Shown here: in pieces, positions 40,939 through 58,791 of the stretch
Layout: the number at the start of each line of letters is the position of its first letter
Position numbering within the stretch: position 1 is the stretch's first letter
NCBI RefSeq assembly: GCF_001050155.1
Contig: NZ_LFVY01000019.1
Span: forward strand, 1 to 64,000
Reading direction: 5' to 3'
From: Nitratireductor soli
GTDB lineage: Bacteria > Pseudomonadota > Alphaproteobacteria > Rhizobiales > Rhizobiaceae
DNA: 64,000 nt
The notes under the pieces: generated by a model
What the model was told of the DNA's origin: nothing
Seen by the model: only the letters and a program-made list of their open reading frames with translations
The model's database searches: none
Translations under genes and position numbers: made by a program

Positions 40939-40977
40939 CGGCACGCCTTCCCGGCCGGGCCTTGCAGAGCCATCGGC

Positions 40978-42904: not shown

Positions 42905-44398
42905 TCAGATCGGGTCGAGGGGGTAGATCGGACGGCGCAGCTTGCGGTAGGGCAGCGTGCGCAAATTGCTGGCGCACGGCCCCGGCGTGCTGACCGTGTA
43001 GCTTGCAGCCGCGATGCGATCATAGGCACGGCGGTGGGCGACGGCAGCCTTCACCCCGATCACCGAAAGCTGTTCCGGCGTGATCCCCTGCGAGCGCAGT
43101 TGACCCAGGTCGAACGGCGGTGTCTTGCGGCTGGTGAGAAGGACGGTAACGGTGTCGTCGGCGACCACCACGGCACAGGGGCCCATGTCGAACGTGGCGC
43201 CCTGGGCGGCGGCAAGGTGGCTGTTCAGATCCTCCAGCCGGAATGCGCCGTCGCTCAACCGCACGAGCCTGGCGGAAACCTCGACCGGCCCCTCGTCCAG
43301 CGAACTCCGTTTGCCGCCGATGCGCAGGCGCCTGACCTCGCCCGGTTTTGCATCCTGCAGGCTGGCGACCGCCTCGGGATCGGCGATCACGACGGCCGAA
43401 TTCTCCATGCCGTGGCGCAGGAGCCCTCGCAGAACCGCCGTGCAATCGCCGGGCGCGCCGCCACCGATATTGTCGGCGGGTTCAACGATGATGCTCGGGC
43501 CTGGCGCGTTGCCAATGGCTCTTAGCGCCGCGTCCAGGTCCCATTCGCGCGGCAGGCCGCGCTCGCGCAGCGCCATGGCCAAATCGGCCAGCGTCTGCAG
43601 GTGGATGTCGGCTGCCGCGTCATCGCCTTCGGTGACCAGCGAAATTGCCACGCCGGCATCGCGTACGTCCGAGAACGAGAACCCGGCGACGACGTTGATC
43701 GCCCAGATCGACGCATCCTGCCGCTCGATCTCACGGGCCCGCGCCTCAAGCTCCTTCATCGGATCGTCGGCGGTGCCCGTTCCCGTCGGCGGCCACATCA
43801 AGGGCAGATTGCGCACCTTCATCCGCGGCGTCGTACCATCTTCGAGGCAGCGCGCCAGCAGCCGCGCCGAGCGAACCGCGGCTTCGCGCGCATCCGTGTG
43901 CGGGTTCTCGCGGTAGCACACCAGGCCGTTGGCGTTGACCGCCATGGTTTCGGTGAAGGTGGCGTGAAGATCGAAGACGCCGAATACCGGCAGGTGCCCT
44001 GCGCCGGCGACGTTCCGGATACGCCGGAGGAATTCCCCCTCCAGGTCGTCGCATCGATCGGTTACGGCGGCGCCGTGCAGCGCAAGCCATATTCCGTCGA
44101 GCCGCCCGCCGCCCAGCGCCTGACGGAGGTCCGCCTCGAACGCGCGCCAAAACTGCTCGAAAACCGCGTGATCGATCATTCCCGAAGGAAGCGCGACATA
44201 CTCCACGGAGGCGACGAGGTCCCAATCATTCTCCCCGGCGACTTCCAGGAAACCGTCAACCGTCGAGGCGTCGCCGCGCCGCGCGAGGAGATCGTCGCCG
44301 CGCCGGACATCGAAATCCGTCGCCGTCGTGCACTCCTCGACGAAGGTGTGGGTCTCATGAAAAAACCCGGCGAAGAATATCCTCGGACGCTGCTTCAT
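42905..44398 (-). CDS. M81 family metallopeptidase (MlrC-like), paralogue 1
   Basis: A 497-residue protein of the MlrC family, zinc enzymes named for the third enzyme of microcystin degradation. Likely active-site residues are visible in the order known for MlrC: the Glu of GFFHETHTF, the His of LALHGAAV, the Asp and His of FDLHATFTE, and the His of YRENPHTDAREA. The C-terminal domain begins near IIVEPADNIGGGAPGD. GGAG lies just before the ATG at 44398; the frame is open to 44617. It is closest to paralogue 4 (56907). It diverges from an IclR gene. Confidence 0.88.
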   Translation of the reverse strand: MKQRPRIFFAGFFHETHTFVEECTTATDFDVRRGDDLLARRGDASTVDGFLEVAGENDWDLVASVEYVALPSGMIDHAVFEQFWRAFEADLRQALGGGRLDGIWLALHGAAVTDRCDDLEGEFLRRIRNVAGAGHLPVFGVFDLHATFTETMAVNANGLVCYRENPHTDAREAAVRSARLLARCLEDGTTPRMKVRNLPLMWPPTGTGTADDPMKELEARAREIERQDASIWAINVVAGFSFSDVRDAGVAISLVTEGDDAAADIHLQTLADLAMALRERGLPREWDLDAALRAIGNAPGPSIIVEPADNIGGGAPGDCTAVLRGLLRHGMENSAVVIADPEAVASLQDAKPGEVRRLRIGGKRSSLDEGPVEVSARLVRLSDGAFRLEDLNSHLAAAQGATFDMGPCAVVVADDTVTVLLTSRKTPPFDLGQLRSQGITPEQLSVIGVKAAVAHRRAYDRIAAASYTVSTPGPCASNLRTLPYRKLRRPIYPLDPI

Positions 44399-44525
44399 CT
44401 CACTCCAGTTCCTGCGCATCGCGTGACGAGCGGTTCCACACGCCCGCGCCGCGCCCAATCGCACAGCCCGTCCGCGATCGACCCGGCCGCCCCGATCGCC
44501 ACCATGGCGGCAACATAACGCTTGA

Positions 44526-44550
44526 AGACGTTCAACAATATAGTACGATT
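44526..44550. promoter_or_regulatory. Candidate IclR-type dyad, site A
   Basis: AGACGT-N13-ACGATT shares length, spacing and its right arm with the perfect dyad AATCGT-N13-ACGATT at 56678-56702. It lies in the 364-bp region between M81 paralogue 1 (minus) and the IclR gene (plus). A looser copy, beginning TTTCGT, starts at 44678. The regulator is presumably the adjacent IclR protein; this is inference. Confidence 0.45.
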
Positions 44551-44762
44551 TAGCTTTGCTTTTCGAAGGGAGTAAATGACCAAACTTCCGCGCCGTCAAC
44601 CTGTTTTTATCACACATATGAACAGAAATGGCTTTCCGTCACCTGACGTCTCCGCGCGTCTGGCTTGCAACATTTCCTTTCGTCCTATATTATAAGATAC
44701 AATCTGTCTTGCCTGCCCACCCGGCGCGTGGCATGAAAACCGGACATCAAGGAGAAGCCATC

Positions 44763-45548
44763 ATGGTCGATGCCACCCGGCAACAGAGCCCTTCCGTGGA
44801 AGCGCGGATCCAGTCCGTCGCCCGCGCCAAGGCGCTGCTCGACGCAATGATCGAAGGCGACTGGGTGTCGCTGCGGGTCCTGGCGGCCAGGACCGGTCTG
44901 GTGAAGACAACCGCGTTCAACCTCATCAACGCTCTTGTCGAAACGGGTCTCGCCGAGCGGGACATCCAAACCGGATCCTACCGCCTCAGCCTGCAGCACG
45001 TCGTCTACGGACGCGCCGTCGAACGCAGGCTGGACATCCTCGCAATCGCCCGGCCGCATCTGATATCGCTGTGCGCCGAAACACGGGAAACCATCAATCT
45101 GGCCCTGCCCTGCCCCGCCGATGCGACCATCGTCGAGAGCCTGGAAGGCAGCCAGAACCTGCGCGTCTCATCCTATTCGGGCACACGGGCGCCCTATCAT
45201 TCGACCGCCTGCGGCCGCGCCCTGCTGGCCTACCAGACCGACCATTTCCGCAGGTTCATCTATGCCGTCGGGCCGCTGCTCAAGCTCACGCCCAACACCA
45301 TCACGGACCCGGAAGAGCTCGAAGCGGCGCTGGTGCGCTGCCGCACGGATGGGTGGACGGTGGAAATGGAAGAGAACGAATTGGGCAGCGCCTGCATCGC
45401 CGCGCCGATCTTCGGGCCAAGCGGCGATGTCATCGCCTCGGTCAGCATCGCCGGCCCGGCGGCGCGTTTCGATCCAAAGACCGTGCAGCGGTTCGGCACG
45501 TTGCTCGTCGCCAATCTGGCGCGGATCAGTCACGACCTGGCGCACTGA
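44763..45548 (+). CDS. IclR family transcriptional regulator
   Basis: A 261-residue regulator. The N-terminal winged helix is SLRVLAARTGLVKTTAFNLI with INALVETGLAERD. The effector domain includes HSTACGRALLAYQTDHFRRF and GSACIAAPIFGPSGDVIASV, typical of IclR. AAGGAG precedes the ATG at 44763; the frame is open to 44628. It lies divergent from M81 paralogue 1 and converges with the second importer. It probably controls one or both M81/importer units. Confidence 0.92.
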   Translation: MVDATRQQSPSVEARIQSVARAKALLDAMIEGDWVSLRVLAARTGLVKTTAFNLINALVETGLAERDIQTGSYRLSLQHVVYGRAVERRLDILAIARPHLISLCAETRETINLALPCPADATIVESLEGSQNLRVSSYSGTRAPYHSTACGRALLAYQTDHFRRFIYAVGPLLKLTPNTITDPEELEAALVRCRTDGWTVEMEENELGSACIAAPIFGPSGDVIASVSIAGPAARFDPKTVQRFGTLLVANLARISHDLAH

Positions 45549-45636
45549 CAAGGGCGCGTGGACAGAGGCATATCGGAGGCAAGGGAGAACACTCCCGCCT
45601 GTCATCGACCGGCCAGCCGGCGCCGTCCGATGCCGC

Positions 45637-46584
45637 TCACCCATAGTCGATGCGCGGATCGACATAGGCGTAGAGCACATCGACGGCCAGGTTGATCGCG
45701 ACATAGAGGACCAGGATGACGACGATGCAGCCCTGGATCAGCGGATAGTCGCGCGTGCCGATCGCCTGTATCAGCAGGCGGCCGAGACCGGGATAGGTGA
45801 ACACCGCCTCGGTGACGACCGCGCCGCCGATGAAGCTTGCCATCATCAGTCCGACAATGGTGATGAAGGGCAGCAGAGCGTTGCGCATGATGTGGATGCC
45901 CACCACCTGGCGTTCGGGAAGACCCTTGGCGCGTGCGGTGCGCACATAATCGGCGCGCAGCTCGCTCACCAGCGAAGCGCGCAGGAAGCGCGCCAGGATG
46001 CCTGACACGTAGACGCCGAGCGTTATCGCCGGAAGCAGCAGATTGCGGATCGAGGCAATGGGATCCTCCCAGATCGGCACGTAGCCGGAGACCGCGGGAA
46101 GCCAGCGCAGATCCACGGCAAACCACAAGATCAGCAGGATGCCCAGCCAGAACGTCGGCACGCCGAGCGCCAGCGCACTCCAGGCGGACAAGATGCGATC
46201 GATCCACGAGCCGGGATAGATGGCGCTGGCAACGCCGACGGGAATGCCCAGCGCCAGTGCCACCACCGTCGCGGAGACCGCCAGATGCAGGGTTGCAGGC
46301 AGGCGTTGGCCGATGAGATCGAGAACCGGTTCGCGCCCATAGATCGAGATGCCCAGATCGCCGAAGGCGGCGCGTCGGAGCCAATCGAGATACTGGACGA
46401 CAACGGGCCGGTCGAGACCGTACTGGGCGGTCACGGCGGCGATCTGCTCCTGCGTCGCGTTCTCGCCGACAAGCCCGGCGATGGGCCCTCCCGGCACGGC
46501 GTAAAGCATCGCCCAGACGCCAATGGAAGCAATGAGCACGACAGGCACCAGCTGCACCAGCCGGCGAAGTACGAAGCCGATCAT
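45637..46584 (-). CDS. Dipeptide-type ABC transporter permease (DppB type), second importer
   Basis: A 315-residue permease with six helices, starting MIGFVLRRLVQLVPVVLIAS as in most DppB/GsiC proteins. The coupling loop is YVRTARAKGLPERQVVGIHI. It is the last gene of the second importer operon, overlapping the DppC-type gene by four bases. It is related to but clearly distinct from the DppB-type protein at 39997, so the two importers are separate acquisitions rather than a recent tandem copy. Confidence 0.94.
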   Translation of the reverse strand: MIGFVLRRLVQLVPVVLIASIGVWAMLYAVPGGPIAGLVGENATQEQIAAVTAQYGLDRPVVVQYLDWLRRAAFGDLGISIYGREPVLDLIGQRLPATLHLAVSATVVALALGIPVGVASAIYPGSWIDRILSAWSALALGVPTFWLGILLILWFAVDLRWLPAVSGYVPIWEDPIASIRNLLLPAITLGVYVSGILARFLRASLVSELRADYVRTARAKGLPERQVVGIHIMRNALLPFITIVGLMMASFIGGAVVTEAVFTYPGLGRLLIQAIGTRDYPLIQGCIVVILVLYVAINLAVDVLYAYVDPRIDYG

Positions 46585-47459
46585 GGCGTGGTCCTCTCGA
46601 TCTCTGCACCACTGGCGTCGTGGCGGTCTTCCAGGAGCGTTGCCAGCGCGCGGCCGATCACGTCAAAGGAAAGGATTGTGAATGTCAGAACAACGCCGGG
46701 CAGGACCGCATAATACGGCGCTTCGTAGAGATAGGATTTGCCCGTGCGCAGCATCTCGCCCCAACTCGGCGTCGGCGGCGCAACGCCGACACCGAGGAAG
46801 GCGAGCGCGGCTTCCAGAAGAATGGCGACCGAACACAGGACCACGACCTGGACCAGGATCGGGCTCCAGGAATTGGGCAGGATGGTGCGGAACATGTTGT
46901 ATCCCGACGAGCCGCCGAACGCCTCGACGGCCGTTACGAAATCGCGTTTGCGCAACGACAACACGCGGGCTCGCGTGATGCGGGCGAAGTTCGGAATGCC
47001 GGTGATGCCGACGGCGATGACGGCGGCCATCTGGCTGCGCCCGAGGACGGCAATCAGGGCCATGGCGAAAAGGATGGCCGGCAGGGCGAGCAGGACATCG
47101 ATGAAACGCATCAGCACCGTATCGCGCCAGCCCCCAAAGAAGCCGGCGACGAGCCCTATCGGAATGCCGAGGGCAGCGGCGATGATCACCGCTGCGCCCG
47201 CCGTGCTGAGCGAGGTGCGGGCGCCGTAGACCACCCTGGCGAAGATGTCGCGGCCGAGTTCGTCGGTGCCGAACCAGTTGGTGGCGGACGGACCCTTCAG
47301 CGCGTCGACCAGCCGCTGGGCGAACGGATCGATCGGAAGCACATCCACCAGCAGCGCGGCGCTCACCAGCGTAAGCAGGAAAAAGAGTGCCGCGGCGCTT
47401 GCCACGCGCGACATCAGTCCGCTCAGCAACCAGTATGTCGAATTCAGCGCCCGGTTCAT
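46581..47459 (-). CDS. Dipeptide-type ABC transporter permease (DppC type), second importer
   Basis: A 292-residue permease. The conserved NWFGTDELGRDIFARVVYG and the coupling loop AVEAFGGSSGYNMFRTILPN are present, with six membrane helices. The start at 47459 overlaps the ATPase stop as ATGA; the longer frame to 47525 would run into that gene. It pairs with the DppB-type protein at 45637. Confidence 0.93.
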   Translation of the reverse strand: MNRALNSTYWLLSGLMSRVASAAALFFLLTLVSAALLVDVLPIDPFAQRLVDALKGPSATNWFGTDELGRDIFARVVYGARTSLSTAGAAVIIAAALGIPIGLVAGFFGGWRDTVLMRFIDVLLALPAILFAMALIAVLGRSQMAAVIAVGITGIPNFARITRARVLSLRKRDFVTAVEAFGGSSGYNMFRTILPNSWSPILVQVVVLCSVAILLEAALAFLGVGVAPPTPSWGEMLRTGKSYLYEAPYYAVLPGVVLTFTILSFDVIGRALATLLEDRHDASGAEIERTTP

Positions 47460-49522
47460 CGCGACACCTCCGCAAGCGTGGCAGACTTGCGGTCCAGGGG
47501 GCCGGCATGGTGACAGGCGGTCCATGTCGACAGGCCGGAATATGGCTGAAACGCCGGCGCTTCAACGCTGCAGCGCCCACTCGCGCGGAAACAGCGCGGA
47601 TGGAAAACGCAGCCGTCAGGCGGTGCGGCGGGACTGGGAATCTCGCCTTCCAGAACGATGCGCCGCCCGGCATGCCGCGCCGCCGGGTCCGGATCAGGCG
47701 CGGCCGACAAAAGGCTCTGCGTATAGGGATGGACAGGGTTGTCGTAAAGCTCGTCGCGCGTGCCCTGTTCAACGATACGGCCAAGATACATGACGGCGAC
47801 GCGGTCTGAGATGTGGCGCACCACGGAAAGGTTGTGCGCGATGAAGAGGTAGGACAGGCCCAGCTCCGCCTGCAGGTCCTGCAGCAGGTTGAGGATCTGC
47901 GCCTGGATCGAGACATCCAGGGCGGCGACCGGTTCATCCAGGATGAGGAGGCGCGGCTCGAGGATCAACGCGCGGGCAATGCCAATGCGCTGACGCTGGC
48001 CGCCGGAGAACTCACTCGGATAGCGGCCGAGCATTCCACGCGACAGGCCGACCATGTCGAACAGCTCGGCCACGCGCCGCGCGCCGCCCATTTCCTCGTA
48101 GAGGCCGTGAATGCGCAGCGGCTCGGAAACGATGTCCTCGGCCGGCAGGACCGGGTTCAGCGACGAATAGGGATCCTGGAAGATGTACTGCATCCGGCGA
48201 CGCGCCGCGCGCATCTCGCCACGGCCAAGCCGCACCATGGATTGACCGTCGAAGCGGATGTCGCCGGCACTTGCCGGCACGAGCCCCATCACGGTCCTGC
48301 CGATCGTCGTCTTGCCGCAGCCAGATTCACCGACAAGGCTCAGGGTCTCGCCGGCGCGCACGCTGATGTTGACGCCATCGACGGCCCGCACCCACCCGGT
48401 GGTGCGCCTGAGAACGCTCGACTTGATGGGAAAATGAACCTTCAGCCCCTCGACTTCCAGGAGCGGCGGGGCAGTCGTTTCAGTCGGTTTCGGCTTTGCC
48501 ATCGCATGGACTTTCGCCGGCGGCAGCGCTTCATCGACATAGTGACAGGCGGCCTGCTGCAGCGCGGCGACCGCCGACAGCGTCGGATCCTCGGTGCGGC
48601 AGCGCGGGCGGCCCGATCCGACTGCGCAGCGCGGCTCGAAGGCGCACCCCGGCGGCAGAGCGTAGGGCATGGGCGGCTGACCGGGGATGGGATCGAGCCT
48701 GGCCTCGCCCGCGTCCATCCGCGGGATCGAGCGCAGCAGCGCGCGGGTGTAGGGATGGCGCGGCGAACGGAAGATCGCGTCCACCGGCCCCGTCTCGACG
48801 ATGCGCCCGCCATACATGACGGCGACGCGGTCGGCCACCTGGGCGACGACCCCGAGGTCGTGCGTGATGAGAACGACGGCGGCGCGCATCTCCGCCTGGC
48901 GTCGCGCCAGCACGGTCAGCACCTGCGCCTGCACGGTGACATCGAGCGCCGTGGTCGGTTCATCGGCAATGATCAATTTCGGCTGACCGGCGATGGCCAT
49001 GGCGATGACGGCGCGCTGGCGCATGCCGCCGGAAAACTGGTGCGGATACTGCCGCACGCGCTGTTCGGGGTCGGCGATGTCGACGTCCCGCAGCAGTTCG
49101 ACGGCGCGGGCCTCCGCGTCGGCGCGGCGCAAACGAGACAGCGCCACCTGGCCCTCCGTGATCTGGCGACCGACCTTCAGAACCGGATTGAGCGTGGTGC
49201 CGGGATCCTGAAAGACAAAACCGACGTCCTCGCCACGCATGCGCCGCAGGACATCGCGGTCGGCGCCGTTCACTTCCATGCCGCCAAGCCTGATGCTGCC
49301 TTCGATCTGCGCCGTCTCCGGCAGCAGGCCGGTAACGGCCAGCGAGGTGACGCTCTTGCCGGAACCGGACTCGCCGACGATGCACAGCACCTCGTTCGGA
49401 TAAACGTCGAAGTCGATGCCGCGCACGACCGGCACGCGGCGGTCCGAAACTGAAAACTCCACCTTCAGGCCCCGTACGGAAAGTACGGGGCCTGTGGTTG
49501 CGGTCTCTTCCGCCAACTTCAT
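47456..49522 (-). CDS. Fused dual ATP-binding protein of peptide ABC transporter (DppD-DppF fusion)
   Basis: A 688-residue protein with two full ATPase domains in one chain, as in GsiA. Domain 1 has Walker [15 protein letters not shown], signature [14 protein letters not shown] and Walker [13 protein letters not shown], with an oligo_HPY Cys-containing tail ([12 protein letters not shown]). Domain 2 has [28 protein letters not shown] and [12 protein letters not shown], and its own tail ([12 protein letters not shown]). The first importer uses separate DppD and DppF genes. It overlaps the binding-protein gene and DppC-type gene by four bases each. Confidence 0.96.
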
Positions 49523-51075
49523 TCCTTGAAGCCGATCGTTCGGGCGACGAGGAGGTTGTCGATGTCCAGCGTGAAACCGGAAAGCTTCGGCGAGGCAACG
49601 ATCAGACCGATGTCATAGGAGTTGGTGGGTATGGCGAAGGACGATTCCACCAGCACCTTGTTGAGGTTGTCGTAGGCCGCCTTGACCTCCTCGACCGACC
49701 CCAGCGTCGTGTTCACCCGCTCGATCGCGGCGACATAATCGGGGAAGGGATGCGGGTCCTTCAGGACCGGGTTGTTCGCCGTCCGATAGATGCTGTTGGT
49801 GGCGACGCGCGAGGGGAACTTCTGGATGTTGCCGACGCCGCCGAAGGTGGCCTTGTAGTCACCGGAAAGCTGCGCCTCGACATACTCGGACCCTTCACGC
49901 AGATCGAGCTCGATGTTTACGTCGAGGTCGGCGAGGGCCGCCTGCACGATCTGGCTGATGGTGACGGATGCCGCATCGGTGCTGTAGACCAGCAGTTTCC
50001 AGTCCTCCATCTCGGCCTGGCTCAAACCGGATTCTGCGATCAGCTCGCGCGCCTTGTCGAGGTTGAAGGCATAGTTTTCCGTATAGGAGGAATCGAAGGC
50101 CGGGCCGGCCGGCGCCCATGGCAATGCCACCGGTTGACCCAGGCCGGCATAGCCGACGCGCAGGATTCCCTCGCGGTCGAGCAGGTAGTTGAAAGCCTGG
50201 CGGAACTTGGCATTGTCGAATGGCGCCTGCGTCGCGTTGATGCGGAACACCTGCACCAGGGGACCGGGGCCACGGATCAGCTGATAGCCGGCGTCCTTCA
50301 GGCGCACCGCGCTTCGCGCCGTGCCGCCATAGACCATGTCCATGCCGCCGGATTCGAGCGCCGCACTGGCCGAGGCATCGTCGCTGAAGATGGTGAAGCG
50401 GAGTTCGCCGATGGTCGGCTCTCCCTCTCGCCAATAGTCGGCATTCGCCTTCAGCACGATGCTTTGACCGACGGCGCGGCTATCGAACGTGTAGGGTCCG
50501 GTGCCTGCGGGAACGGTTTCCACCGTGTCGATGCCCGCCGCCTCGATCGGCATGACGAATTGCAGCAGATCGAGCATCTGCCGGTCCGGTGTCGGCGCCT
50601 TGAAATTGATCACCACCGTGCGGTCGTCGGGCGTTACCCAGTCCTTGACGATCGCCATGGTGGCGTAAACGTTCTTGCCTTTCTCGGGGTCCGCGGCCTT
50701 GGCCAGGGTGGCGGCAACATCCGCCGATGTGAGTGCAGCCCCGGAATGGAACTTCACATCGTCGCGCAGGGTGACGCTGACCGACATGTTGTCGTCGGCG
50801 ACCGTCCATGCGGTGGCGAGGCTCGCGACAGCCTCGCCCTCGGGCGTGTATTCGATCAGGCTGTCATAGAGGTTCTTGATCAGCGGGAAATTGACCGTCG
50901 AGAACTGCATCGGATCGAAATTGGTCATGTCGGCGAGCACGGCCACCCGCAGCGTTCCGCCCTGCAATTGCTCTGCCTGCGCCCGGGCGGGCATGGCGGC
51001 AAGGAAGGCCGGGGCGGCGGCGACTGCAAGCAGGACCCCCAGCAATCTGATTGGTCGTAAGAATGCGTTCTTCAT
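49519..51075 (-). CDS. Peptide ABC transporter substrate-binding protein (SBP_bac_5), second importer
   Basis: A 518-residue periplasmic protein with a Sec signal peptide (LLGVLLAVAAAPAFLAAMPA, cleavage near ARA-QAEQ). The mature part includes MTNFDPMQFSTVNFPLIKNL and VTLRDDVKFHSGAALTSADV, typical of DppA-like proteins. The ATG at 51075 has GGGAG 8 bases upstream and is preferred to the GTG five codons earlier. It follows M81 paralogue 2 by 80 bp and overlaps the dual ATPase gene, giving the operon M81-binding protein-ATPase-permeases. Confidence 0.92.
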   Translation of the reverse strand: MKNAFLRPIRLLGVLLAVAAAPAFLAAMPARAQAEQLQGGTLRVAVLADMTNFDPMQFSTVNFPLIKNLYDSLIEYTPEGEAVASLATAWTVADDNMSVSVTLRDDVKFHSGAALTSADVAATLAKAADPEKGKNVYATMAIVKDWVTPDDRTVVINFKAPTPDRQMLDLLQFVMPIEAAGIDTVETVPAGTGPYTFDSRAVGQSIVLKANADYWREGEPTIGELRFTIFSDDASASAALESGGMDMVYGGTARSAVRLKDAGYQLIRGPGPLVQVFRINATQAPFDNAKFRQAFNYLLDREGILRVGYAGLGQPVALPWAPAGPAFDSSYTENYAFNLDKARELIAESGLSQAEMEDWKLLVYSTDAASVTISQIVQAALADLDVNIELDLREGSEYVEAQLSGDYKATFGGVGNIQKFPSRVATNSIYRTANNPVLKDPHPFPDYVAAIERVNTTLGSVEEVKAAYDNLNKVLVESSFAIPTNSYDIGLIVASPKLSGFTLDIDNLLVARTIGFKE

Positions 51076-51155
51076 TTGGATAGCTCCCACTCCTTAGTTG
51101 CTCTTATCGTTCGTTCTTGGCGCGCAATACGCGCGCTGTATGTACCTTGCCGTCC

Positions 51156-52670
51156 CTAACCGCGTGCCGGCACCAGTCCCGGCTGGGACGAATGCGCCCG
51201 CCAGTCCTCGAAGCTCTCGAGCGGATACATGGGCCGGGGAACGCGCTGCCACGGCAGTGTCAGGACATCGGATTGGCCGGGACCGCGCGTGTCGGCGCGA
51301 ATGAGCTGCGAAGCGATGGGCGCGAAGTACTGGAAGTTCGACGCGGTCTTCAGCACCGCCATCTTGTACTCGGCGGGCTCGATGCCCATCACCCGGTAGA
51401 CGCTCGGCACATTGCCCGCCACGCCCCGGAACTCGGTGATCAGCATCGTCACCGGCCCGACCTCGAAAACGACGGCGCAACCAAGGTCCAACTCGCTCTG
51501 CTGGTTGTAGTCGATCTTGACGATTCCGCCGCCGATCCTGCGCACGACGCCGGTGACTTCGAGCGGCTGGAAGAATGCGGTGGCCGTATCACCGCCCAGC
51601 GTCAGGGTGACCTCCGCCCCCTCGCCCGCGGCGGCCAGCTTGTGCGCCGTCGAAGCGGATATCATCGGCATCAGCGCCTTGCCCCTGATGCCCAGCCGCA
51701 GCATGGCTTCGAGGATCACATTGCTATCGCCGCCGGCCCCGCCGAACACGGTGTCGCCGGTATCGCTGATGATGACGACGCCTTTGTCTGCCGCGTCGGC
51801 GCGGAGCACCGCCTCGTCCACCGGGACGGCCTCCCGCACCTGGAATTCGTCACGCAGCGACCAGCACAGATCGGCAAGCTCGTCGGCCAGTTCCTCCGCC
51901 AACGCCCGGTCACCGTTGGTGACGACAACCGCCGACCAGCCGCCCTCGGCCACGTCCAGCCACGGCTGCATCGGATAGTTGGACACCTGGAGAACACGCG
52001 GATCCTGCTCCATCTCACGTGCCCGGTCGAACCAGATCTTCATCGGCCCCTGCGAGGTGAGAAACTGCTCCTGATGGGAGACGAGCGGAATCTTGCGCCA
52101 AGCGATGACCGGCTTGAGCTTCTCGGTCAGGATGCGCAACAACAGCCGCGTGCCGACCACCCCGGTGTCGAAGGTGTCGTGCGGCTGCGTGCGGTGCCCG
52201 ACGATCGCATCGCAGTTGTCGATGATCTTGCGCGTGATGTTCGCATGATGATCGAGGCCGAGCACGATCGGCACATCCGCGCCGAGCAGCGACCGGCACA
52301 GCTCCACCTGCGCGCCCTCGACGTCGTCGATGCCATCGGCCGCGCACGCGCCGTGAAGCTGCAGCGCGAGACCGTCGATCGGACCGGCAGCGGTGAGGCC
52401 GTCGCGGATCTTCTTCTGGAAAAAATCAAAGGCCTCGCGGCTGATGCGCCCGCCCGCCACCGCATATCCACGGATGATCGGGACGGATTCCACCGCAATG
52501 CCGCTCTCCTCGACAGCGTGCAGATAGCCCCCTATCTGCCCATAGCCACGCATCTTCTCGAAGACGTCGGCGCCATCGAGGATCCCGAAAGACCGGTAAT
52601 CGTCCAGAGTTGTCAGCTTCGGATTGAAGTCGTTCGTCTCCTGGGCGACATGTATTACTGCGATTCGCAC
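51156..52670 (-). CDS. M81 family metallopeptidase (MlrC-like), paralogue 2
   Basis: A 504-residue M81 protein, the most divergent of the four. The first motif is HVAQETNDF, so Glu is kept but the preceding His is Gln. The others are LQLHGACAADG, LGLDHHANITRK (Asp-x-His) and HRTQPHDTFDTG. The C-terminal domain begins near VVIISDTGDTVFGGAGGD. The start codon is GTG with AAGGGA 9 bases upstream. It leads the second importer operon, which suggests its substrate is what that importer brings in. The upstream 156 bp are AT-rich and probably hold the promoter. Confidence 0.88.
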   Translation of the reverse strand: MRIAVIHVAQETNDFNPKLTTLDDYRSFGILDGADVFEKMRGYGQIGGYLHAVEESGIAVESVPIIRGYAVAGGRISREAFDFFQKKIRDGLTAAGPIDGLALQLHGACAADGIDDVEGAQVELCRSLLGADVPIVLGLDHHANITRKIIDNCDAIVGHRTQPHDTFDTGVVGTRLLLRILTEKLKPVIAWRKIPLVSHQEQFLTSQGPMKIWFDRAREMEQDPRVLQVSNYPMQPWLDVAEGGWSAVVVTNGDRALAEELADELADLCWSLRDEFQVREAVPVDEAVLRADAADKGVVIISDTGDTVFGGAGGDSNVILEAMLRLGIRGKALMPMISASTAHKLAAAGEGAEVTLTLGGDTATAFFQPLEVTGVVRRIGGGIVKIDYNQQSELDLGCAVVFEVGPVTMLITEFRGVAGNVPSVYRVMGIEPAEYKMAVLKTASNFQYFAPIASQLIRADTRGPGQSDVLTLPWQRVPRPMYPLESFEDWRAHSSQPGLVPARG

Positions 52671-52826
52671 GGCTATCTTCCCTTGTTATTATTAACCGGA
52701 AGCAGAATTCCAGAATTATATATTCAATAATTATTCATAGTTCTTTCGATACTTCACAAAATTATTTAGGATAAACCCAGGTGTCAACGACGCCGGGTTC
52801 CGCCTGAAGGAACAACGCGCCTCGCT

Positions 52827-53645
52827 TCACGCCTGCATCCCGATTTGCATCGGCGCTGCCGTAACGGGCGAAGGCATGGTTCCCATGCAAGCGGAGATGC
52901 GCAATGCCGCGTCCTTCAACGCCTGCGCCGCCTGCGCCGTCATATCCCGGCATCGCAGGCGCTTTTCGGGCGCCGAAAGGCTCATGGCGGCGACCGGATA
53001 GCCCGAACCGTCGAGAATAGGCACGCCGATGCACATGAGACCGTCTTCGTTCTCGCCGATCTCGACCGCGTAGCCGCAGCGGCGCACGTTGCTTGCCTGG
53101 CGACGCAGACTGCGCTCGTCGGTCAGTGTGTTGATGGTCATTGCCGGCAGTGGGGCGCGGCATATCGGCCCCATTGCGTCCTCGGGCAGATAGGCGGCCA
53201 TTGCCTTTCCGAGCGAGGTGGAATGCACGGGATGCCGATGGCCGACCCGCGCCTGCATACGCACCGGCCGACCCGTGCCGATGATGTCGATGTAGACGAT
53301 CTCGCCCTGCGAGCGCACGGCAAGGTTGACCGTCTCGCAGAAGGTCTCCGCCAGCCGGTGCATTTCGGGCCGGGCGTGATCACGCAGATCCTGCAGATCG
53401 CGGTCGACCCGCGCCAAGTCGCGAAAGCGCGGTCCCGTGCGATAACGGTCGTGGCGCAGATCGTATTCCAGGAAAGAAGCGGCCGAAAGGCTTTGCAGAT
53501 AGCGGAAGACGGTGGTCTTGGGCAGCTTCACATTGTGCACCGTCTCGGTGAGCGTCACGTCCCGGCCCTGCCGCGTCACGTATTCGAGGACCTGAAGGGC
53601 CCTCATCACCGGTTGAACGACATAGTCATCGCCGATCCCGCTCAT
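52827..53645 (-). CDS. IclR family transcriptional regulator, second
   Basis: A 272-residue regulator. The winged helix-turn-helix is VTLTETVHNVKLPKTTVFRY with LQSLSAASFLEYD. The effector domain contains HSTSLGKAMAAYLPEDAM and GLMCIGVPILDGSGYPVAAM, and resembles KdgR-type IclR proteins. The ATG at 53645 has AGGGCGAGG just upstream. It lies between the PLP-enzyme gene (82 bp upstream) and M81 paralogue 2, in one direction, so it may regulate both the operon behind it and its own. Confidence 0.92.
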   Translation of the reverse strand: MSGIGDDYVVQPVMRALQVLEYVTRQGRDVTLTETVHNVKLPKTTVFRYLQSLSAASFLEYDLRHDRYRTGPRFRDLARVDRDLQDLRDHARPEMHRLAETFCETVNLAVRSQGEIVYIDIIGTGRPVRMQARVGHRHPVHSTSLGKAMAAYLPEDAMGPICRAPLPAMTINTLTDERSLRRQASNVRRCGYAVEIGENEDGLMCIGVPILDGSGYPVAAMSLSAPEKRLRCRDMTAQAAQALKDAALRISACMGTMPSPVTAAPMQIGMQA

Positions 53646-53726
53646 CGCCTCGCCCTTTCGTGTTCTGCCTCGCGCAGGCATTGCTGCCGGCGCCCTTCAC
53701 AAACCTTTCCCCTGGTGCGAGAGCGA

Positions 53727-55028
53727 TCAGAAATACGTCTTCAGCGCTTTCGTCACCCGATATCCCTCATCGACCACCAGCAGCATCGACCATTTGTCGA
53801 AGGTCGTGCAGGGATGGCCGATGCCGAAGCCCACCATGTCGCCAAACGCCAGCGGACTGTCCTGCGGCGTTGCGAGATGGCAATGCTGATCGTTGAGCGC
53901 CACGGTTTCATGCCCGTCGGGGATGGGTTGCGGGGCGTCCATGCCCGATCCCGGGCGATACCAGCGCTGCGGCTGCGGAAGCCCGGCATCGAACCCCACA
54001 TCCCGCTTGCCCATGGTCAGCATGGCGCGGGTCGCTTCGGGCCGCGACTGCACGAACGCCCACACCTCCAGCGCCGGCTCCAGTCCGCCGGCCGGCAGCA
54101 CGAGCGTCGTCTCGGCCAGGATGCGGCGGAAAGCCCTGGCATAGCTCATCGTATCGTGGGTCAGGTAGCACCCCGAGCGCAGAACGCGCAGGATCGGCCG
54201 GGAAAACGACACCCGCCCGAAGCGCTCGCCCACCCGGTCGAAGAAGGCTGAGCCGCCGGCACTGATGATCACCGGCGCCTCCGCCGCGATCATGCCCTCG
54301 TCGAGGGCGCGGCGCGCAAGCTCGGCAACGTCGTCGATCAATCCATCTGCCGCCTGGGGCGTCGGCAAGACGCCCTCGAAACATTCGAAGCCCGCCAGTT
54401 GCAAACCGGGCATCGCGGCGATGCTGCGCGCCAGCGCCAGCGCCTCCTGGCGCGTCCGCGCGCCGGTGCGGCCACCGGGGAAGCCGGCCTCGACCAGGAT
54501 GCGCAGCGGATTGCCGGCGGGTGGCGGATTGCGACGCGCGGCATCGGCGAGCAGAGCCAATCCCGCCACGCCGTCGGCCAGGCAGTAAAGCTCGAATGTC
54601 TCATCGCGAAGGGCCCGGAAGCAGGCGTCGACAGCAGGACGTCCGACCGGTTGGTTGGCCAGAAGAACACGCTTCACGCCAAAGCTACGGCAGACCTCCA
54701 TCTGCTGGATGGTCGCCACGGTGATTGCCCAGGCCCCGTCCGCTATCTGCAAGTCGAACAGCTGCGGCGACATGGTGGTCTTGCCGTGCGGCGCGAGCGC
54801 AAGGCCGTTGGCCGTCGTGAAATCGCGCATCCATGCGCTGTTGGCTTGCAGAATCTCCTGGCGGACGATTGCCGCCGGCAGCGGAATGTCTCCGTCCAGG
54901 AGGCTCCAACCCCGCCCGCCGACATCACCAACCCGCATGGGCGGCGAACCAAAGGGCAGGCCCTTGGTCAGCGGATCGAGCGGCTGTTCTTCAAGCGCGG
55001 CGATGTCGAGGCGCGGGATCATAGCCAT
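53727..55028 (-). CDS. D-serine dehydratase/D-threonine aldolase-like PLP enzyme (amino acid deaminase)
   Basis: A 433-residue fold-type III PLP enzyme (alanine racemase-like N-terminal barrel). The PLP lysine is Lys83 in LALAPHGKTTMSPQ, which matches the PHxKT motif of D-threonine aldolase and DSD1-type D-serine dehydratase. NDQHCHLATP near the C-terminus is where these enzymes place metal ligands (His/Cys). It probably removes ammonia from a D- or beta-hydroxy amino acid. The coding frame overlaps M81 paralogue 3 by ten bases; an ATG at 55022 (ATGA overlap) is the alternative start. Confidence 0.85.
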   Translation of the reverse strand: MAMIPRLDIAALEEQPLDPLTKGLPFGSPPMRVGDVGGRGWSLLDGDIPLPAAIVRQEILQANSAWMRDFTTANGLALAPHGKTTMSPQLFDLQIADGAWAITVATIQQMEVCRSFGVKRVLLANQPVGRPAVDACFRALRDETFELYCLADGVAGLALLADAARRNPPPAGNPLRILVEAGFPGGRTGARTRQEALALARSIAAMPGLQLAGFECFEGVLPTPQAADGLIDDVAELARRALDEGMIAAEAPVIISAGGSAFFDRVGERFGRVSFSRPILRVLRSGCYLTHDTMSYARAFRRILAETTLVLPAGGLEPALEVWAFVQSRPEATRAMLTMGKRDVGFDAGLPQPQRWYRPGSGMDAPQPIPDGHETVALNDQHCHLATPQDSPLAFGDMVGFGIGHPCTTFDKWSMLLVVDEGYRVTKALKTYF

Positions 55029-56482
55029 GGGTTTGCGTCCAGCGGCGATATCGGGCGACGGACCTTCCGGTAGGTGACCTTGGTCACGTCGGCGGGGTAA
55101 GGCCCACCCGTGTCGAGATAGTGGATTTGCGCGGCGATCTTCGAGAACGCGGCATAGAAATGGTTCGAGGATTTCACCACGACGATCTTCTTGCACGACA
55201 GATCGATGCCCAAATCGGTGAAGGCCGGCGGGCTGAAGGTCTGGGCGCGGCCTGTCGCAAGCACGATGTCGAGATTGCCGATCGCGATGGATGCGGCCGG
55301 GCCGAGTGAAACCCAACTCTGCTCGAACGGGATAAGCAGATCGTCGGTCGTCGCGCGGACCGTCACCACGGCATCGATCGGCGCGCCGGAAGTCGCTGCG
55401 GCCTTGCCGCAGAAACGCAGCGGTATCTCGGCGCCGGCACCGGCGCCGCGGCAAAGCGAGACGGCGATCGGGTCCCAGAACGCGCCGATCGCCGCCGGGA
55501 TTTCCGGATGGCGCAACAGTGCCTCGACCATCACCGTTGAATCGCCCGCAACGCCGCCGCCGGGACTGTCCCAACGATCGGCGAAGACGATCGGCTGGCC
55601 TTCCTCGGCCAGAGCGAGGGCAATGGCCTCCTCCGGCTTGTAATGGCGCGGCCCGGCTCCGGAACCGCCCCATCCGAGGATCTCCCGCCCGAGCGCCTCG
55701 GCCAGCGTCCTGGCCTTCTGCCGGTTCGCCTCCCCGTCGACCACCACCAGCACCTTGGTGCCGACATCGTAGACATCGGCAGCCTGGAAACCGTGTGCGA
55801 CAGAGATGCTGAGAATGCCGTCCCGCCCCTCCATGGCAAGCATGCGATCGACGAAGGCACGGCCTGGCTGGCGGCTCGTCATGAAGCCCGACATGGCGCG
55901 ACAGTCGAAAACCTCGGATACCGGCGTCACCTCCCCGTGCGCGGTGCGCAGGCAAAGCTCCACCAGGTCATCTGCCCGCTGCAGGAAATCGGTATGCGGA
56001 AACTCCTTGAAGGCGACCAGCACATCGGCTGCCTCAACCCGCTTGTCGGTCAGGTGACAATGCATGTCGAGCTCGGCGCCGATCACGCAGCCCGGCCCGA
56101 CGATGGCGCGGGCGCGGGCGAGCAGGTCGCCCTCGCAATCGTCATAGCCGCGCGCCACCATCGCGCCGTGCAGCCCGAACAAGGCGATGTCGAGCGGCAG
56201 CGCCTGTTGCAGTTGGTCGAGGATCTCGTCGCGCAGGCTCTCATAGGCCTGACGCGACACGAGGCCGGCCGGCTCGGCCCAGGTCGCCGTCCCCTCGATC
56301 AGCGTGAAGCCGTCGGCGCGGGCGCGCCGCCGCGCCGCGACAACGGGCGCCGAGCACAGTGTCGGCGTCTGCGGATGGGTTCCCGGCGGACAATAGAAGG
56401 CCGCCTCGAACGCTGTTCTGTCGACGAAAAGCGGCGAGAACGTATTTGTCTCGGTTGCCAGAGAAGCGACGAAAACGCGCAA
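55019..56482 (-). CDS. M81 family metallopeptidase (MlrC-like), paralogue 3
   Basis: A 487-residue M81 protein. Motifs are ASLATETNTF (Glu kept), FGLHGAMVARG, AELDMHCHLTD (Asp-x-His) and FKEFPHTDFLQ. The C-terminal domain starts near IVFADRWDSPGGGVAGDS. The start codon is TTG with AGGAGG 7 bases upstream, a convincing non-ATG start. It is coupled to the D-serine-dehydratase-like gene by overlap, suggesting that the product of this hydrolase is deaminated by that enzyme. It is divergent from paralogue 4. Confidence 0.88.
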   Translation of the reverse strand: MRVFVASLATETNTFSPLFVDRTAFEAAFYCPPGTHPQTPTLCSAPVVAARRRARADGFTLIEGTATWAEPAGLVSRQAYESLRDEILDQLQQALPLDIALFGLHGAMVARGYDDCEGDLLARARAIVGPGCVIGAELDMHCHLTDKRVEAADVLVAFKEFPHTDFLQRADDLVELCLRTAHGEVTPVSEVFDCRAMSGFMTSRQPGRAFVDRMLAMEGRDGILSISVAHGFQAADVYDVGTKVLVVVDGEANRQKARTLAEALGREILGWGGSGAGPRHYKPEEAIALALAEEGQPIVFADRWDSPGGGVAGDSTVMVEALLRHPEIPAAIGAFWDPIAVSLCRGAGAGAEIPLRFCGKAAATSGAPIDAVVTVRATTDDLLIPFEQSWVSLGPAASIAIGNLDIVLATGRAQTFSPPAFTDLGIDLSCKKIVVVKSSNHFYAAFSKIAAQIHYLDTGGPYPADVTKVTYRKVRRPISPLDANPWL

Positions 56483-56531
56483 TCAATCCCCTCCTTGCCG
56501 CTTTCCAATTCCGCAGACCATACTACATTAT

Positions 56532-56613
56532 GGAATGCATTACTTCTGCAGTTGTTCATTCTGCGACCAGATCGGAATTTTTGTCAACCGAATATCGCGT
56601 CGGAATGCATAAC
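56532..56613. promoter_or_regulatory. Direct repeat GGAATGCATWAC, two copies
   Basis: GGAATGCATTAC at 56532-56543 and GGAATGCATAAC at 56602-56613 are 70 bp apart, i.e. close to an integral number of helical turns (about 6.7). They lie in the 424-bp region between M81 paralogues 3 and 4. Each contains AATGCAT, largely self-complementary. They may bind a regulator; the identity is unknown. No gene is visible in the region 56483-56906. Confidence 0.45.
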
Positions 56614-56677
56614 CTCCGCGCTATTGCCTTGCAATTTGCGAGTTCTCATAGTTTCAATGCTCCGTCCAACCATTTGG

Positions 56678-56702
56678 AATCGTCTTATTATATAGAACGA
56701 TT
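56678..56702. promoter_or_regulatory. Candidate IclR-type dyad, site C
   Basis: AATCGT and ACGATT form a perfect 6-bp dyad with a 13-base AT-rich spacer. The equivalent at 44526-44550 has the same spacing and right arm. It lies 205 bp upstream of M81 paralogue 4, the closest relative of paralogue 1, which has the other site. A shared regulator is likely; whether it is an IclR protein is inference. Confidence 0.5.
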
Positions 56703-56906
56703 GACTGGAATGATCGAGAAAAGCGCCATCACTGCCTCTTCGAGAATGGCCCCGCCTGGCGACCTGAAACGGATTGCGAACCCGGATGCCGAAAAGCATC
56801 CGCGGGGCATCCCAGACGGCGCAGGGGCTTTCGCCCGTCCAGTTCTGTTCATCGGCCAGCCGAGGGCGGCCGAACCCGTTCCAGCCAACCATAGCGGTGA
56901 GGAGAA

Positions 56907-58403
56907 ATGAGAAAGAAGCGCATACTGCTCGCGGCGATCTTCCACGAGACCCACACCTTCGTCGAGCACACCACCACGTTCGACGATTTTTCCATCATGC
57001 GGGGCGACGACATACTGCGGAGAAGAGGAGACGGCTCCACCATCTCCGGCTTCCTCGAAGTGGCCGAAGCCGAGGATTGGGATGTGGTCCCGATCGCCGA
57101 CTACGCCGCGGTTGCCTCCGGCACGGTCGACCACGCCGTGTTCGATCAGTTCTGCGGCGAGATGGAGGCGGGCCTGAAGAAGGCGCTCGCCGATGGCGGC
57201 CTCGACGGGATCTGGCTTTCCCTTCACGGCGCCATGGTCACCACGCAATCCGTCGATCCGGAAGGCGATCTGCTGGCCCTGATACGCGCCGTGCCCGGTG
57301 CCGAAGCGCTGCCGTTGTTCGCCGTCTTCGACCTGCACGCCACCATGACCGCCAAGATGGCGGCACACGCCAACGGTCTCGTCGGCTACCGCGAGAACCC
57401 GCACATCGATTCCCGGGATTCGGCGATGCGTTCTGCGCGCATGCTGGCCCGGTCCCTGCGCGAGGGCGTGCTGCCGAGGGTGCTGGCGCGGAACGCACCC
57501 GTCATATGGGCGCCGCCCGGCACCGGCACAGCGGATCGGCCCATGCGCGATCTTGAACAGGAAGCACGCCGGCTGGAAGCACAGAACCCCGACATCTGGG
57601 AAGCCAGTGTCGTCGCCGGCTACGCCTTTTCCGATGTTCCTCACGCCGGTGTCGCGTTCAGCGTCATCACCACCGGTCCCGAGCAGGACGCGGCCCTCGC
57701 CCTCGATGCGCTGGAGCAGTTGGCCGTGGAGCTTCGCGCCCTCGGCCAGCCCGAGGAATGGGACCTCGATGCCGCCCTGTCGGAAATCAGCGGCAAAAGC
57801 GGCGGGCCGTTCGTCATCGTCGAGCCGGCCGACAATATCGGCGGCGGTGCGCCCGGCGACGATACGGCGGTGCTGCGCGGTTTCCTCAGGCACGGCTTCA
57901 CCAACGCCGCCGTGATCATCGCCGACGCCGCCGCCGTGGCCGCGCTGGCGGACGCAAAACCGGGCGACCGGCGACGCCTCAGCATCGGCGGCAAGGGCAG
58001 TCCCCTCGGCGCCGGCCCGCTCGACGCCGACGTCGCGTTCATCAGCCGCAGCGATGGCGCCTTCACGCTCGAGGACCGCAACAGCCACATGGTTGCCTCC
58101 AGGGGCGTCCACATCCGCATGGGGGCTTCTGCGGTGGTCCGCATAGAAGGCGTCACGGTGCTGCTGACCAGTCTGAAAACATCTCCGAACGATCTCGGGC
58201 AGCTTCGCTCCCAGGGCATCGTGCCGGAAAAACTGTTCGCCATCGGCGTCAAGGCAGCGGTTGCGCATCAGCGCGCCTACGACCCCATCGCCGCCGGCAG
58301 CTACACGGTCAGGACACCCGGCCCCTGCACCAGCGCACTGACCACCTTGCCGTATCGCCGGCTGCGCCAGCCAGTCTTTCCCATCAGCCATCAGAGGACA
58401 TGA
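56907..58403 (+). CDS. M81 family metallopeptidase (MlrC-like), paralogue 4
   Basis: A 498-residue M81 protein very similar in plan to paralogue 1: AIFHETHTFVEH, LSLHGAMVTT, FDLHATMTAKM, YRENPHIDSRDS, and the C-terminal start VIVEPADNIGGGAPGDD. Both begin with near-identical layout (RRGDGSTISGFLEVA here, RRGDASTVDGFLEVA in paralogue 1), so they are a recent pair within the four. AGGAG lies just before the ATG. RidA follows after one base. Confidence 0.9.
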   Translation: MRKKRILLAAIFHETHTFVEHTTTFDDFSIMRGDDILRRRGDGSTISGFLEVAEAEDWDVVPIADYAAVASGTVDHAVFDQFCGEMEAGLKKALADGGLDGIWLSLHGAMVTTQSVDPEGDLLALIRAVPGAEALPLFAVFDLHATMTAKMAAHANGLVGYRENPHIDSRDSAMRSARMLARSLREGVLPRVLARNAPVIWAPPGTGTADRPMRDLEQEARRLEAQNPDIWEASVVAGYAFSDVPHAGVAFSVITTGPEQDAALALDALEQLAVELRALGQPEEWDLDAALSEISGKSGGPFVIVEPADNIGGGAPGDDTAVLRGFLRHGFTNAAVIIADAAAVAALADAKPGDRRRLSIGGKGSPLGAGPLDADVAFISRSDGAFTLEDRNSHMVASRGVHIRMGASAVVRIEGVTVLLTSLKTSPNDLGQLRSQGIVPEKLFAIGVKAAVAHQRAYDPIAAGSYTVRTPGPCTSALTTLPYRRLRQPVFPISHQRT

Positions 58404-58404
58404 A

Positions 58405-58791
58405 ATGACCATCGAGTATCCGAGCAACCCTCAGACGCCGCGCTCCCATCTGCCGTTCAGCCCCGCCACCCGCGTCGGCAACCTGATCTTCGTTTCCGGA
58501 CAGGCATCCGTCGACGCGACGGGCAAGATCGTCTCAGACAGCTTCGAGGGCGAACTGCGCCGCTCGATCGAGAACCTGCGCAAGGTGTTGGAAGCAGCCG
58601 GCAGTGATCTCGCCCATGTCGTCCAGACGCGCAACTACGTCCGCGACGACGGTGATCTGGCGGAGTTCAACCGCCTTTATCTTGAATACTTCAAACCGCC
58701 CTATCCGGCCCGCACCACGCTGTCGCGCTGCCTGGGCGGGCTGCGCTACGAGATCGATTGCATCGCCGTGGTGAACGAGGACCGCGCTTGA
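58405..58791 (+). CDS. RidA family enamine/imine deaminase
   Basis: A 128-residue protein of the RidA/YjgF/YER057c family, which hydrolyses reactive enamines and imines formed by PLP enzymes. The family region PYPARTTLSRCLGGLRYEID has the conserved Arg and Glu that bind the substrate carboxylate and water. It starts one base after the M81 paralogue 4 stop codon. The nearby DSD-like PLP enzyme (53727) would produce exactly such enamines; this supports an amino-acid-deaminating pathway. Confidence 0.93.
   Translation: MTIEYPSNPQTPRSHLPFSPATRVGNLIFVSGQASVDATGKIVSDSFEGELRRSIENLRKVLEAAGSDLAHVVQTRNYVRDDGDLAEFNRLYLEYFKPPYPARTTLSRCLGGLRYEIDCIAVVNEDRA

What the first reader, a model, noticed from the sequence alone, without database searches (positions are those of the whole stretch)
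42905..58403. Four divergent M81 (MlrC-like) metallopeptidase genes within 16 kb, interleaved with two peptide importers
Genes at 42905, 51156, 55019 and 56907 encode four M81 paralogues of 487-504 residues. All keep a Glu/His/Asp-x-His/His set resembling the MlrC active site. They stand beside two complete dipeptide-type ABC importers, two IclR regulators, a DSD-like PLP enzyme, RidA, an aminotransferase and an IlvD/Edd dehydratase. Single M81 genes next to importers are common; four in one island is unusual. I infer a catabolic system for a family of related cyclic or N-acylated amino-acid compounds, with each M81 enzyme taking a different member.
Basis: partly seen in the sequence, partly recalled or inferred. 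Interest (0 to 1): 0.85.

Follow-up and report, generated by a model that had tools for sequence, protein, structure and literature searches.

The report
Conserved multi-M81 peptidase catabolic island
This bacterium carries a block of genes, shared by some distant relatives, in which three or four cousins of the enzyme that dismantles a cyanobacterial toxin sit beside importers and D-amino-acid-type enzymes, which suggests one uncharacterised route for using unusual D-amino-acid or amino-sugar compounds.

Summary
Four full M81 genes (PF07364+PF07171) lie at 42905-58403 with two Dpp-type importers, two IclR regulators, a D-serine-deaminase-like fold-III PLP enzyme (DSD), RidA and a GSAM-like aminotransferase (AT3). 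They are not equally divergent: A and D are 60% identical, the other pairs 24-29%. They fall into three well-supported clades. Sixteen of 29 named loci found through M81B also carry C and A/D orthologues within 10 kb. C is nearest MlrC (42%). C-type M81 loci often hold both RidA and a fold-III PLP gene (19 of 43, against 1 of 27 other M81 loci and 1 of 40 controls); 13 of 43 also have a hexosaminidase, recalling the published oxidative-chitin (ong) cluster. I infer that these M81 enzymes hydrolyse N-acyl or peptide bonds of D-configured 2-amino acids or amino-sugar acids, feeding DSD and RidA. No substrate, activity or regulation is shown.

The parts
36423..37298 (-). FAA-hydrolase-family protein; probably accessory
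   Evidence: PF01557; syntenic in N. pacificus; not seen beside importer 1 in L014, L016, L043
37330..38307 (-). importer 1 ATPase (DppF-like)
38304..39122 (-). importer 1 ATPase (DppD-like)
39119..40000 (-). importer 1 permease (DppC-like)
39997..40944 (-). importer 1 permease (DppB-like)
40978..42588 (-). importer 1 binding protein SBP1 (family 5)
   Evidence: nearest solved 8upi, then AgaA 6hlx; importer 1 lies between DSD and M81B in L014 and L016
42905..44398 (-). M81A
   Evidence: Pfam; A/D clade; start
44628..45548 (+). IclR1 regulator, divergent from M81A
   Evidence: within 10 kb in 12 of 16 triple loci
45637..46584 (-). importer 2 permease (DppB/GsiC type)
   Evidence: best NCBIfam score Opp2B 309.8 bits, below its cut-off 350
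46581..47525 (-). importer 2 permease (DppC type by elimination)
   Evidence: PF00528
47456..49522 (-). importer 2 fused double ATPase (DppD-DppF)
   Evidence: two ABC_tran and two oligo_HPY stretches
49519..51090 (-). importer 2 binding protein SBP2 (family 5)
   Evidence: nearest solved AgaA 6hlx, E 5.9e-40; 15 of 16 triple loci
51156..52670 (-). M81B
   Evidence: clade of 28 rows, support 100
52827..53681 (-). IclR2 regulator
   Evidence: 6 of 16 triple loci
53727..55028 (-). DSD: D-serine-deaminase-like fold-III PLP enzyme, overlaps the end of M81C
   Evidence: PF14031/PF01168; 3gwq E 1.2e-99; 14 of 16 triple loci
55019..56482 (-). M81C, nearest to MlrC
   Evidence: 7ylq E 1.1e-109, 42% identity
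56907..58403 (+). M81D
   Evidence: model matches 3iuu and 7ylq
58405..58791 (+). RidA (imine/enamine deaminase family)
   Evidence: PF01042; TIGR00004 78.1 bits, below its cut-off 106.25; 12 of 16 triple loci
58863..60251 (+). AT3: GSAM-like class-III aminotransferase
   Evidence: PF00202; nearest solved GSAM; co-occurrence; 11 of 16 triple loci
60385..62202 (+). IlvD/Edd-family dehydratase; accessory
   Evidence: NF009560 above cut-off; 1 of 16 triple loci, N. pacificus

Best explanation
One conserved catabolic system. Family-5 ABC importers bring in a small peptide-like or N-acylated compound. Three M81 zinc enzyme types (B, C and A/D) hydrolyse successive amide bonds, releasing a D-configured 2-amino acid with a 3-hydroxyl (D-Ser/D-Thr type or a 2-amino-2-deoxy sugar acid). 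DSD eliminates water from it, RidA clears the resulting imine to a 2-keto acid and ammonia, and AT3 handles a second amine. IclR proteins sense the compound. Shown by computation: the gene content, the three clades, their conserved clustering and co-occurrence, intact metal sites, and the link of C-type M81 with RidA plus fold-III PLP enzymes. Inferred: all chemistry, the D-configuration, the order of steps, the regulation.
For: 16 of 29 M81B loci hold B+C+A/D; of those 16, SBP2 in 15, DSD in 14, RidA in 12, AT3 in 11. In 397 genomes all 10 with B have D and 9 have C; by genus 4 of 4, p 3.5e-7 and 6.9e-8. AT3 is in 9 of the 10 B genomes, although in 6 of those 9 it lies away from the island. 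C-type loci: RidA 23/43, fold-III PLP 22/43, both 19/43; other M81 2/27, 1/27, 1/27; controls 1/40 each. Two fold-III subfamilies fill the place: DSD type in the island and in L143, D-threonine-aldolase type in sister clusters. In the ong pathway OngC (fold III) deaminates GlcN1A, D-Ser and D-Thr, and the RidA protein OngD is needed for growth (PMC9537276). MlrC cuts only the Adda-Glu bond (PMC4810221); that this Glu is D is recalled.
Against: No substrate is shown. In vitro OngC alone made KDG and ammonia, and the authors call the role of OngD unknown, so a RidA step is not proven even in the parallel. No conserved operator was found. The RidA/PLP link is a property of the C branch; outside relatives of this island 0 of 25 other M81 loci had either, so extending it to A/D and B rests on their company alone. 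Of ten C-type loci at 41-46% identity eight lack both partners. Sugar permeases and SDR genes were not enriched near M81 (5 v 6, 14 v 9 of 40). Both binding proteins match nickel, dipeptide, murein-peptide and opine proteins. Seven of the 10 B genomes are one genus. MlrC E70 is D in A/D, mostly G in B, L in C, so MlrC specificity cannot be carried over.
Confidence: 0.5

Rival explanations
1. Catabolism of D-residue-containing peptides or lipopeptides (microbial non-ribosomal peptides, murein peptides): each M81 clips the bond before a particular D-residue, and no sugar is involved.
For: Family-5 importers, both with murein-peptide and dipeptide binding proteins among their matches; MlrC precedent for a non-ribosomal peptide; DSD nearest to a D-serine deaminase.
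Against: Sister C-type clusters often have MurR/RpiR regulators, a GH20 hexosaminidase or a sugar importer; a NagA-like gene follows the island in 7 loci of Kaistia and relatives.
Confidence: 0.25
2. One reading: each M81 serves a different member of a family of cyclic or lactam compounds, working in parallel rather than in series.
For: Three clades at 24-29% identity with different residues at MlrC position 70; two importers; SBP2 nearest to AgaA, which I recall as a binding protein for the lactam opine agropinic acid. The types can occur apart: B with an AT3-like gene but no C or D within the flank in L026 (38%), L028 and L036; A/D with RidA and an AT3-like gene in L150.
Against: In the order sample B, C and D are kept as a set. 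No hydantoinase or oxoprolinase among the island genes scanned with Pfam.
Confidence: 0.15
3. A chance neighbourhood of unrelated catabolic operons.
For: IlvD is not conserved with it; importer 1 with M81A and the AT3 module are separable.
Against: Conserved order and co-occurrence in four families of the order sample and beyond.
Confidence: 0.05

Closest known systems
MlrC, linearised-microcystin amidase (Sphingomonas ACM-3962; 7ylq)
   Same: M81 fold and metal site; M81C 42% identical
   Different: MlrC lies outside the C and C2 clades (support 93; long unsure branch); E70 not kept; the island's enzymes come as three types with DSD and RidA
ong cluster for oxidised chitin (Pseudoalteromonas prydzensis, PMC9537276)
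   Same: A fold-III PLP deaminase and a RidA protein follow an N-deacylation step
   Different: OngB is a D-aminoacylase-type amidohydrolase, not M81; the window island has family-5 importers and no GH20, MurR/RpiR or sugar kinase among the genes scanned
C2-type clusters of Rhizobiaceae and Phyllobacteriaceae (M81 + RidA + MurR/RpiR + SDR, with a D-TA enzyme and sugar ABC or with GH20 and a second M81)
   Same: Sister M81 clade with the same partner logic
   Different: Different PLP subfamily; no M81A/D or AT3 orthologue seen in the fetched stretches
3iuu, M81 of Mesorhizobium BNC1
   Same: Fold match to the M81D model (TM 0.83)
   Different: 22-29% identity to the four; no function that I know of

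Membership tests
M81 metallopeptidase family | PF07364 and PF07171 domains | tested here: met
   all four
M81 metallopeptidase family | Zinc ligands E39, D167, H169, H191 (MlrC numbering) | tested here: met
   invariant in 23 A/D, 28 B, 19 C rows; mutants of D167, H169, H191 inactive in PMC4810221 (passages)
M81 metallopeptidase family | MlrC/3iuu fold | tested here: met
   M81D only: model pLDDT 86.1, 3iuu E 9.8e-39 and 7ylq E 7.2e-32
Microcystinase MlrC proper | NCBIfam NF041767 above curated cut-off (999 bits) | tested here: not met
   best 386.7 bits, M81C
Microcystinase MlrC proper | Activity on linearised microcystin | not testable with these tools
   -
ong oxidative-chitin cluster | Fold-III PLP deaminase and RidA | tested here: met
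   DSD and RidA; whether DSD is of the OngC clade was not tested
ong oxidative-chitin cluster | GH20, MurR/RpiR regulator, D-aminoacylase-type OngB, KdgK | tested here: not met
   none among the 19 island proteins of 36.4-62.2 kb scanned with Pfam (a twentieth query was a wrong frame)
Glutamate-1-semialdehyde aminomutase (AT3) | TIGR00713 above cut-off 527.3 bits | tested here: not met
   354.5 bits; the genome has ALAS over its cut-off, so GSAM is not needed for haem (inference)
3-hydroxy-D-aspartate aldolase BhcC (DSD) | NF045642 above cut-off 690 bits | tested here: not met
   71.3 bits

The most novel reading that the evidence does not exclude
M81 is, at least in the MlrC-C-C2 branch, a family of amidohydrolases for N-acylated D-configured 2-amino acids, including N-acetyl-D-glucosaminate. 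Rhizobia then run an oxidative amino-sugar pathway in which an M81 enzyme replaces the D-aminoacylase-type OngB; the window's island is a three-amidase elaboration of the same plan for a larger, still unknown compound; and MlrC was recruited for microcystin (Adda-D-Glu bond) from this stock.
Probability: 0.35. Interest if true: 0.72.

Novelty: new variant of a known kind. Interest (0 to 1): 0.52.

Why it matters
I know of only one M81 member with a shown substrate, MlrC (recalled; the searches listed below showed me no other). A widespread family annotated as 'metallopeptidase' would gain a testable reaction, a D-amino-acid or amino-sugar-acid deacylase feeding a fold-III PLP eliminase and RidA, and a carbon and nitrogen route of Alphaproteobacteria that I did not find described would be opened. 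It would also offer an origin for the microcystin-degrading enzyme.

Tried and rejected
Shared operator between the divergent promoters: an ATATAG-ACGATT match in the window (3 mismatches in 16, the same as the best shuffle) is absent from the upstream regions of N. pacificus and of the other orthologues scanned; rejected. IlvD as a core member: rejected (1 of 16). FAA hydrolase as a core member: unlikely but not excluded. It is not beside importer 1 in L014, L016 or L043, and FAA-like genes were near 0 of 40 M81 loci and 2 of 40 controls; against this, a 66% FAA relative lies about 4 kb from another M81 gene of this genome (L042), and the 10-kb flank of most loci does not reach its place. AT3 as a haem enzyme: unlikely, the genome has ALAS. 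Foreign composition: GC is 0.64-0.65 over the island. Binding-protein homology as a guide to the ligand: inconclusive. Literature: I saw no paper that connects M81 with these partners under 'M81 family metallopeptidase' (2 papers), 'peptidase M81' (0), 'MlrC'+'D-serine'+'ABC transporter' (0), 'MlrC-like' (4), 'M81'+'RidA' (13), 'MlrC'+'D-aminoacylase' (3) and the GlcNAc1A/N-acetylglucosaminate/rhizobi/M81 set (41, of which 15 were listed). For these only the listings were seen, except passages of PMC4810221.

Limits of the counts. The 40 family M81 loci were picked by hand from the printed part, which stops at the higher Pfam scores, roughly one per genus with a few genera twice; low-scoring M81 clades are under-sampled. 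The 30 loci were picked: 28 as C-type hits out of the 97 genomes, two (G072, G556) for their D or B hits. Controls lie 100 kb away on the same contigs (60 kb for one); one control held an M81. In one search the two RidA cases among 'other M81' are L150 and L159, both relatives of this island (L159 is an island without C and supplies the single 'both' case); L151, an island, is among the C-type loci. tblastn hits under 40% query coverage were dropped (35%). M81 fragments under 380 aa were dropped from the first tree (two in L012, one each in L034 and L038), as were the duplicates L037, L038, L048. The first tree is FastTree with many weak deep forks.

Full report
Observation. The four M81 genes are real and complete. 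Pfam assigns both M81 domains to each. M81A runs 42905-44398 on the minus strand if it begins at ATG 'MKQRPR' (497 aa). B is 51156-52670 (-), C 55019-56482 (-), D 56907-58403 (+). A and D are 60% identical; the other pairs are 24-29%. The genome holds seven M81 genes; the other three are on other contigs. From the order I read three transcription units. Unit 1 (-): M81A, SBP1, DppB, DppC, DppD, DppF, FAA hydrolase. Unit 2 (-): M81C, DSD, IclR2, M81B, SBP2, fused DppDF and two permeases. Unit 3 (+): M81D, RidA, AT3, IlvD. IclR1 faces away from M81A. Operon limits are inferred.

Is it a system? A scan of species genomes with M81B gave 29 loci, mapped with window proteins. Three loci hold four M81 genes, thirteen three, five two, seven one, and one a fragment only. 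Sixteen hold B, C and A/D together. Within 10 kb of M81B in those sixteen: SBP2 15, DSD 14, the two importer 2 permeases 14 and 13, fused ATPase 13, RidA 12, IclR1 12, AT3 11, IclR2 6, SBP1 3, IlvD 1, FAA 0. Flanks are cut at 10 kb or at contig ends, so these are lower bounds; FAA and most of importer 1 lie further off in the window and could not be seen there even in N. pacificus, which has them. In L014 and in L016 (Bosea) importer 1 lies between DSD and M81B, and a Microvirga lotononidis plasmid has both importers with D, C and a third, C-related M81 but no B. Importer 1 is therefore part of the system in several lineages.

An independent sample of 397 genomes of the order gave orthologues of D in 12, of B in 10, and of C at 70% identity or more in 10. 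All ten B genomes have D, nine have C. By genus it is 4 of 4 (p 3.5e-7 and 6.9e-8 over 138 genera), which still ignores deeper kinship. AT3 occurs in 16 genomes, 10 of the 12 with D. In the three of these whose AT3 region I fetched it lies beside an IclR2-like regulator, a polar amino-acid importer and a reductase; the one reductase scanned is nearest to 2-hydroxy-3-oxopropionate reductase, below cut-off. AT3 is thus a separable module. In L150 an A/D relative (56%) stands with RidA (70%) and an AT3-like gene (48%) without B, C or DSD.

Trees. A FastTree of 135 M81 proteins places the island's enzymes in three clades: A/D 23 rows (support 100), B 28 rows (100), C 19 rows (99). The A/D and C rows come from island-type loci, but most of these were found through M81B, so that is partly by selection; the B clade also holds rows from loci where no other M81 was seen (L018, L026, L028, L031, L032, L036). 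C is sister to a clade C2 of 18 rows (98), and MlrC falls outside both (93). An IQ-TREE of 65 rows keeps the C and C2-type rows together (92) and leaves MlrC on a long, unsure branch nearby.

Metal site. E39, H133, D167, H169, H191 and D332 (MlrC numbering) are invariant in the A/D, B, C and C2 rows. MlrC E70, reported in substrate binding (PMC9982164, passages), is D in A/D, mostly G in B and L in C and C2, so substrates probably differ. A model of M81D (pLDDT 86.1) matches only 3iuu and 7ylq at E 0.001 or better.

What the partners say. C2-type genes on annotated replicons stand with RidA, a D-TA-family PLP enzyme, MurR/RpiR, SDR and a sugar importer, or with RidA, MurR/RpiR, SDR, a hexosaminidase (GH20 by Pfam in L047) and a second divergent M81; no D-TA gene is annotated in those last two stretches. 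In 40 hand-picked family loci against 40 control stretches: RidA 11 v 1, D-TA-type 9 v 1, DSD-type 5 v 1, MurR/RpiR 13 v 1, hexosaminidase 8 v 0, IclR 13 v 0, family-5 binding protein 23 v 2; not enriched were AT3 4 v 1, SDR 14 v 9, sugar permease 5 v 6, FAA 0 v 2, IlvD 0 v 1. With 30 more loci, C-type loci (40% or more identity to M81C) had RidA in 23 of 43, a fold-III PLP gene in 22, both in 19, hexosaminidase in 13; other M81 loci had 2, 1, 1 and 0 of 27; controls 1, 1, 1 and 0 of 40 (Fisher p 8.1e-5, 1.9e-5 and 2.5e-4 for the first three against other M81). These loci are related to each other, so the p values are too small. The link is a property of the C branch, not of all M81. In seven loci of Kaistia and relatives a NagA-like gene follows the island (the one scanned scores 195.6 bits, below its 225.65 cut-off), and in four of them a D-TA-type enzyme.

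The published ong pathway offers the parallel: OngB deacetylates GlcNAc1A; OngC, a fold-III PLP enzyme, deaminates GlcN1A and also D-Ser and D-Thr; deletion of the RidA gene ongD abolishes growth on GlcNAc1A, though OngC alone gives KDG and ammonia in vitro and the role of OngD is stated as unknown (PMC9537276: passages and section 13). OngB is D-aminoacylase-like (PMC12017989, passages). MlrC hydrolyses only the Adda-Glu bond (PMC4810221, passages); I recall that this Glu is D. From these I infer that C-type M81 enzymes free the amino group of a D-configured 2-amino acid for a fold-III PLP eliminase, with RidA clearing the imine. For the window this gives import, amide hydrolysis by B, C and A/D, elimination by DSD, imine hydrolysis by RidA, and a separate amine to AT3.

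Limits. No substrate, activity, regulation or order of steps is shown. The extension from C to A/D and B rests on their constant company. The neighbouring enzymes could equally serve D-residue peptides. Statements about print rest on the searches listed under Tried and rejected, in one open-access library.

Verdict. It is a new variant of a known kind (a catabolic ABC-importer gene cluster built on M81 enzymes), of moderate interest, rising if the D-amidase reading is confirmed.

Noticed in passing
L046, L047, L062-L069, L071: Eleven stretches with RidA, MurR/RpiR, SDR and two different M81 genes; 10 of 11 with a hexosaminidase and 6 of 11 with a D-TA-type PLP gene seen. They look like an ong-type oxidative amino-sugar pathway with M81 in the place of OngB.
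   Followed up: partly
window 32595-33878 (-): Protein with SBP_bac_3 spanning a Lig_chan pore segment: looks like a bacterial ionotropic-glutamate-receptor relative.
   Followed up: no
window 13009-16440 (+): 1143-aa protein with POR and DUF6537 domains, probably indolepyruvate ferredoxin oxidoreductase (recalled).
   Followed up: no
MlrC literature: PMC9982164 prints H196 as a zinc ligand, but in the aligned chain position 196 is E and the ligand is H191, as PMC4810221 states.
   Followed up: yes
L166, L167, L170 (AT3 loci of three g175 genomes): AT3 stands with an IclR2-like regulator, a polar amino-acid ABC importer and a 2-hydroxy-3-oxopropionate-reductase-like gene, which would fit a beta-amino acid going to a semialdehyde. 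The window also has two permeases at 62267-63705, after IlvD.
   Followed up: partly
L042 (own genome, another M81 locus): A 66% relative of the window's FAA hydrolase lies about 4 kb from another M81 gene that also has Dpp-type importer genes nearby.
   Followed up: no
window 56483-56906: Two copies of GGAATGCAT(T/A)AC in the M81C/M81D intergenic region, not found upstream of the orthologues scanned.
   Followed up: partly
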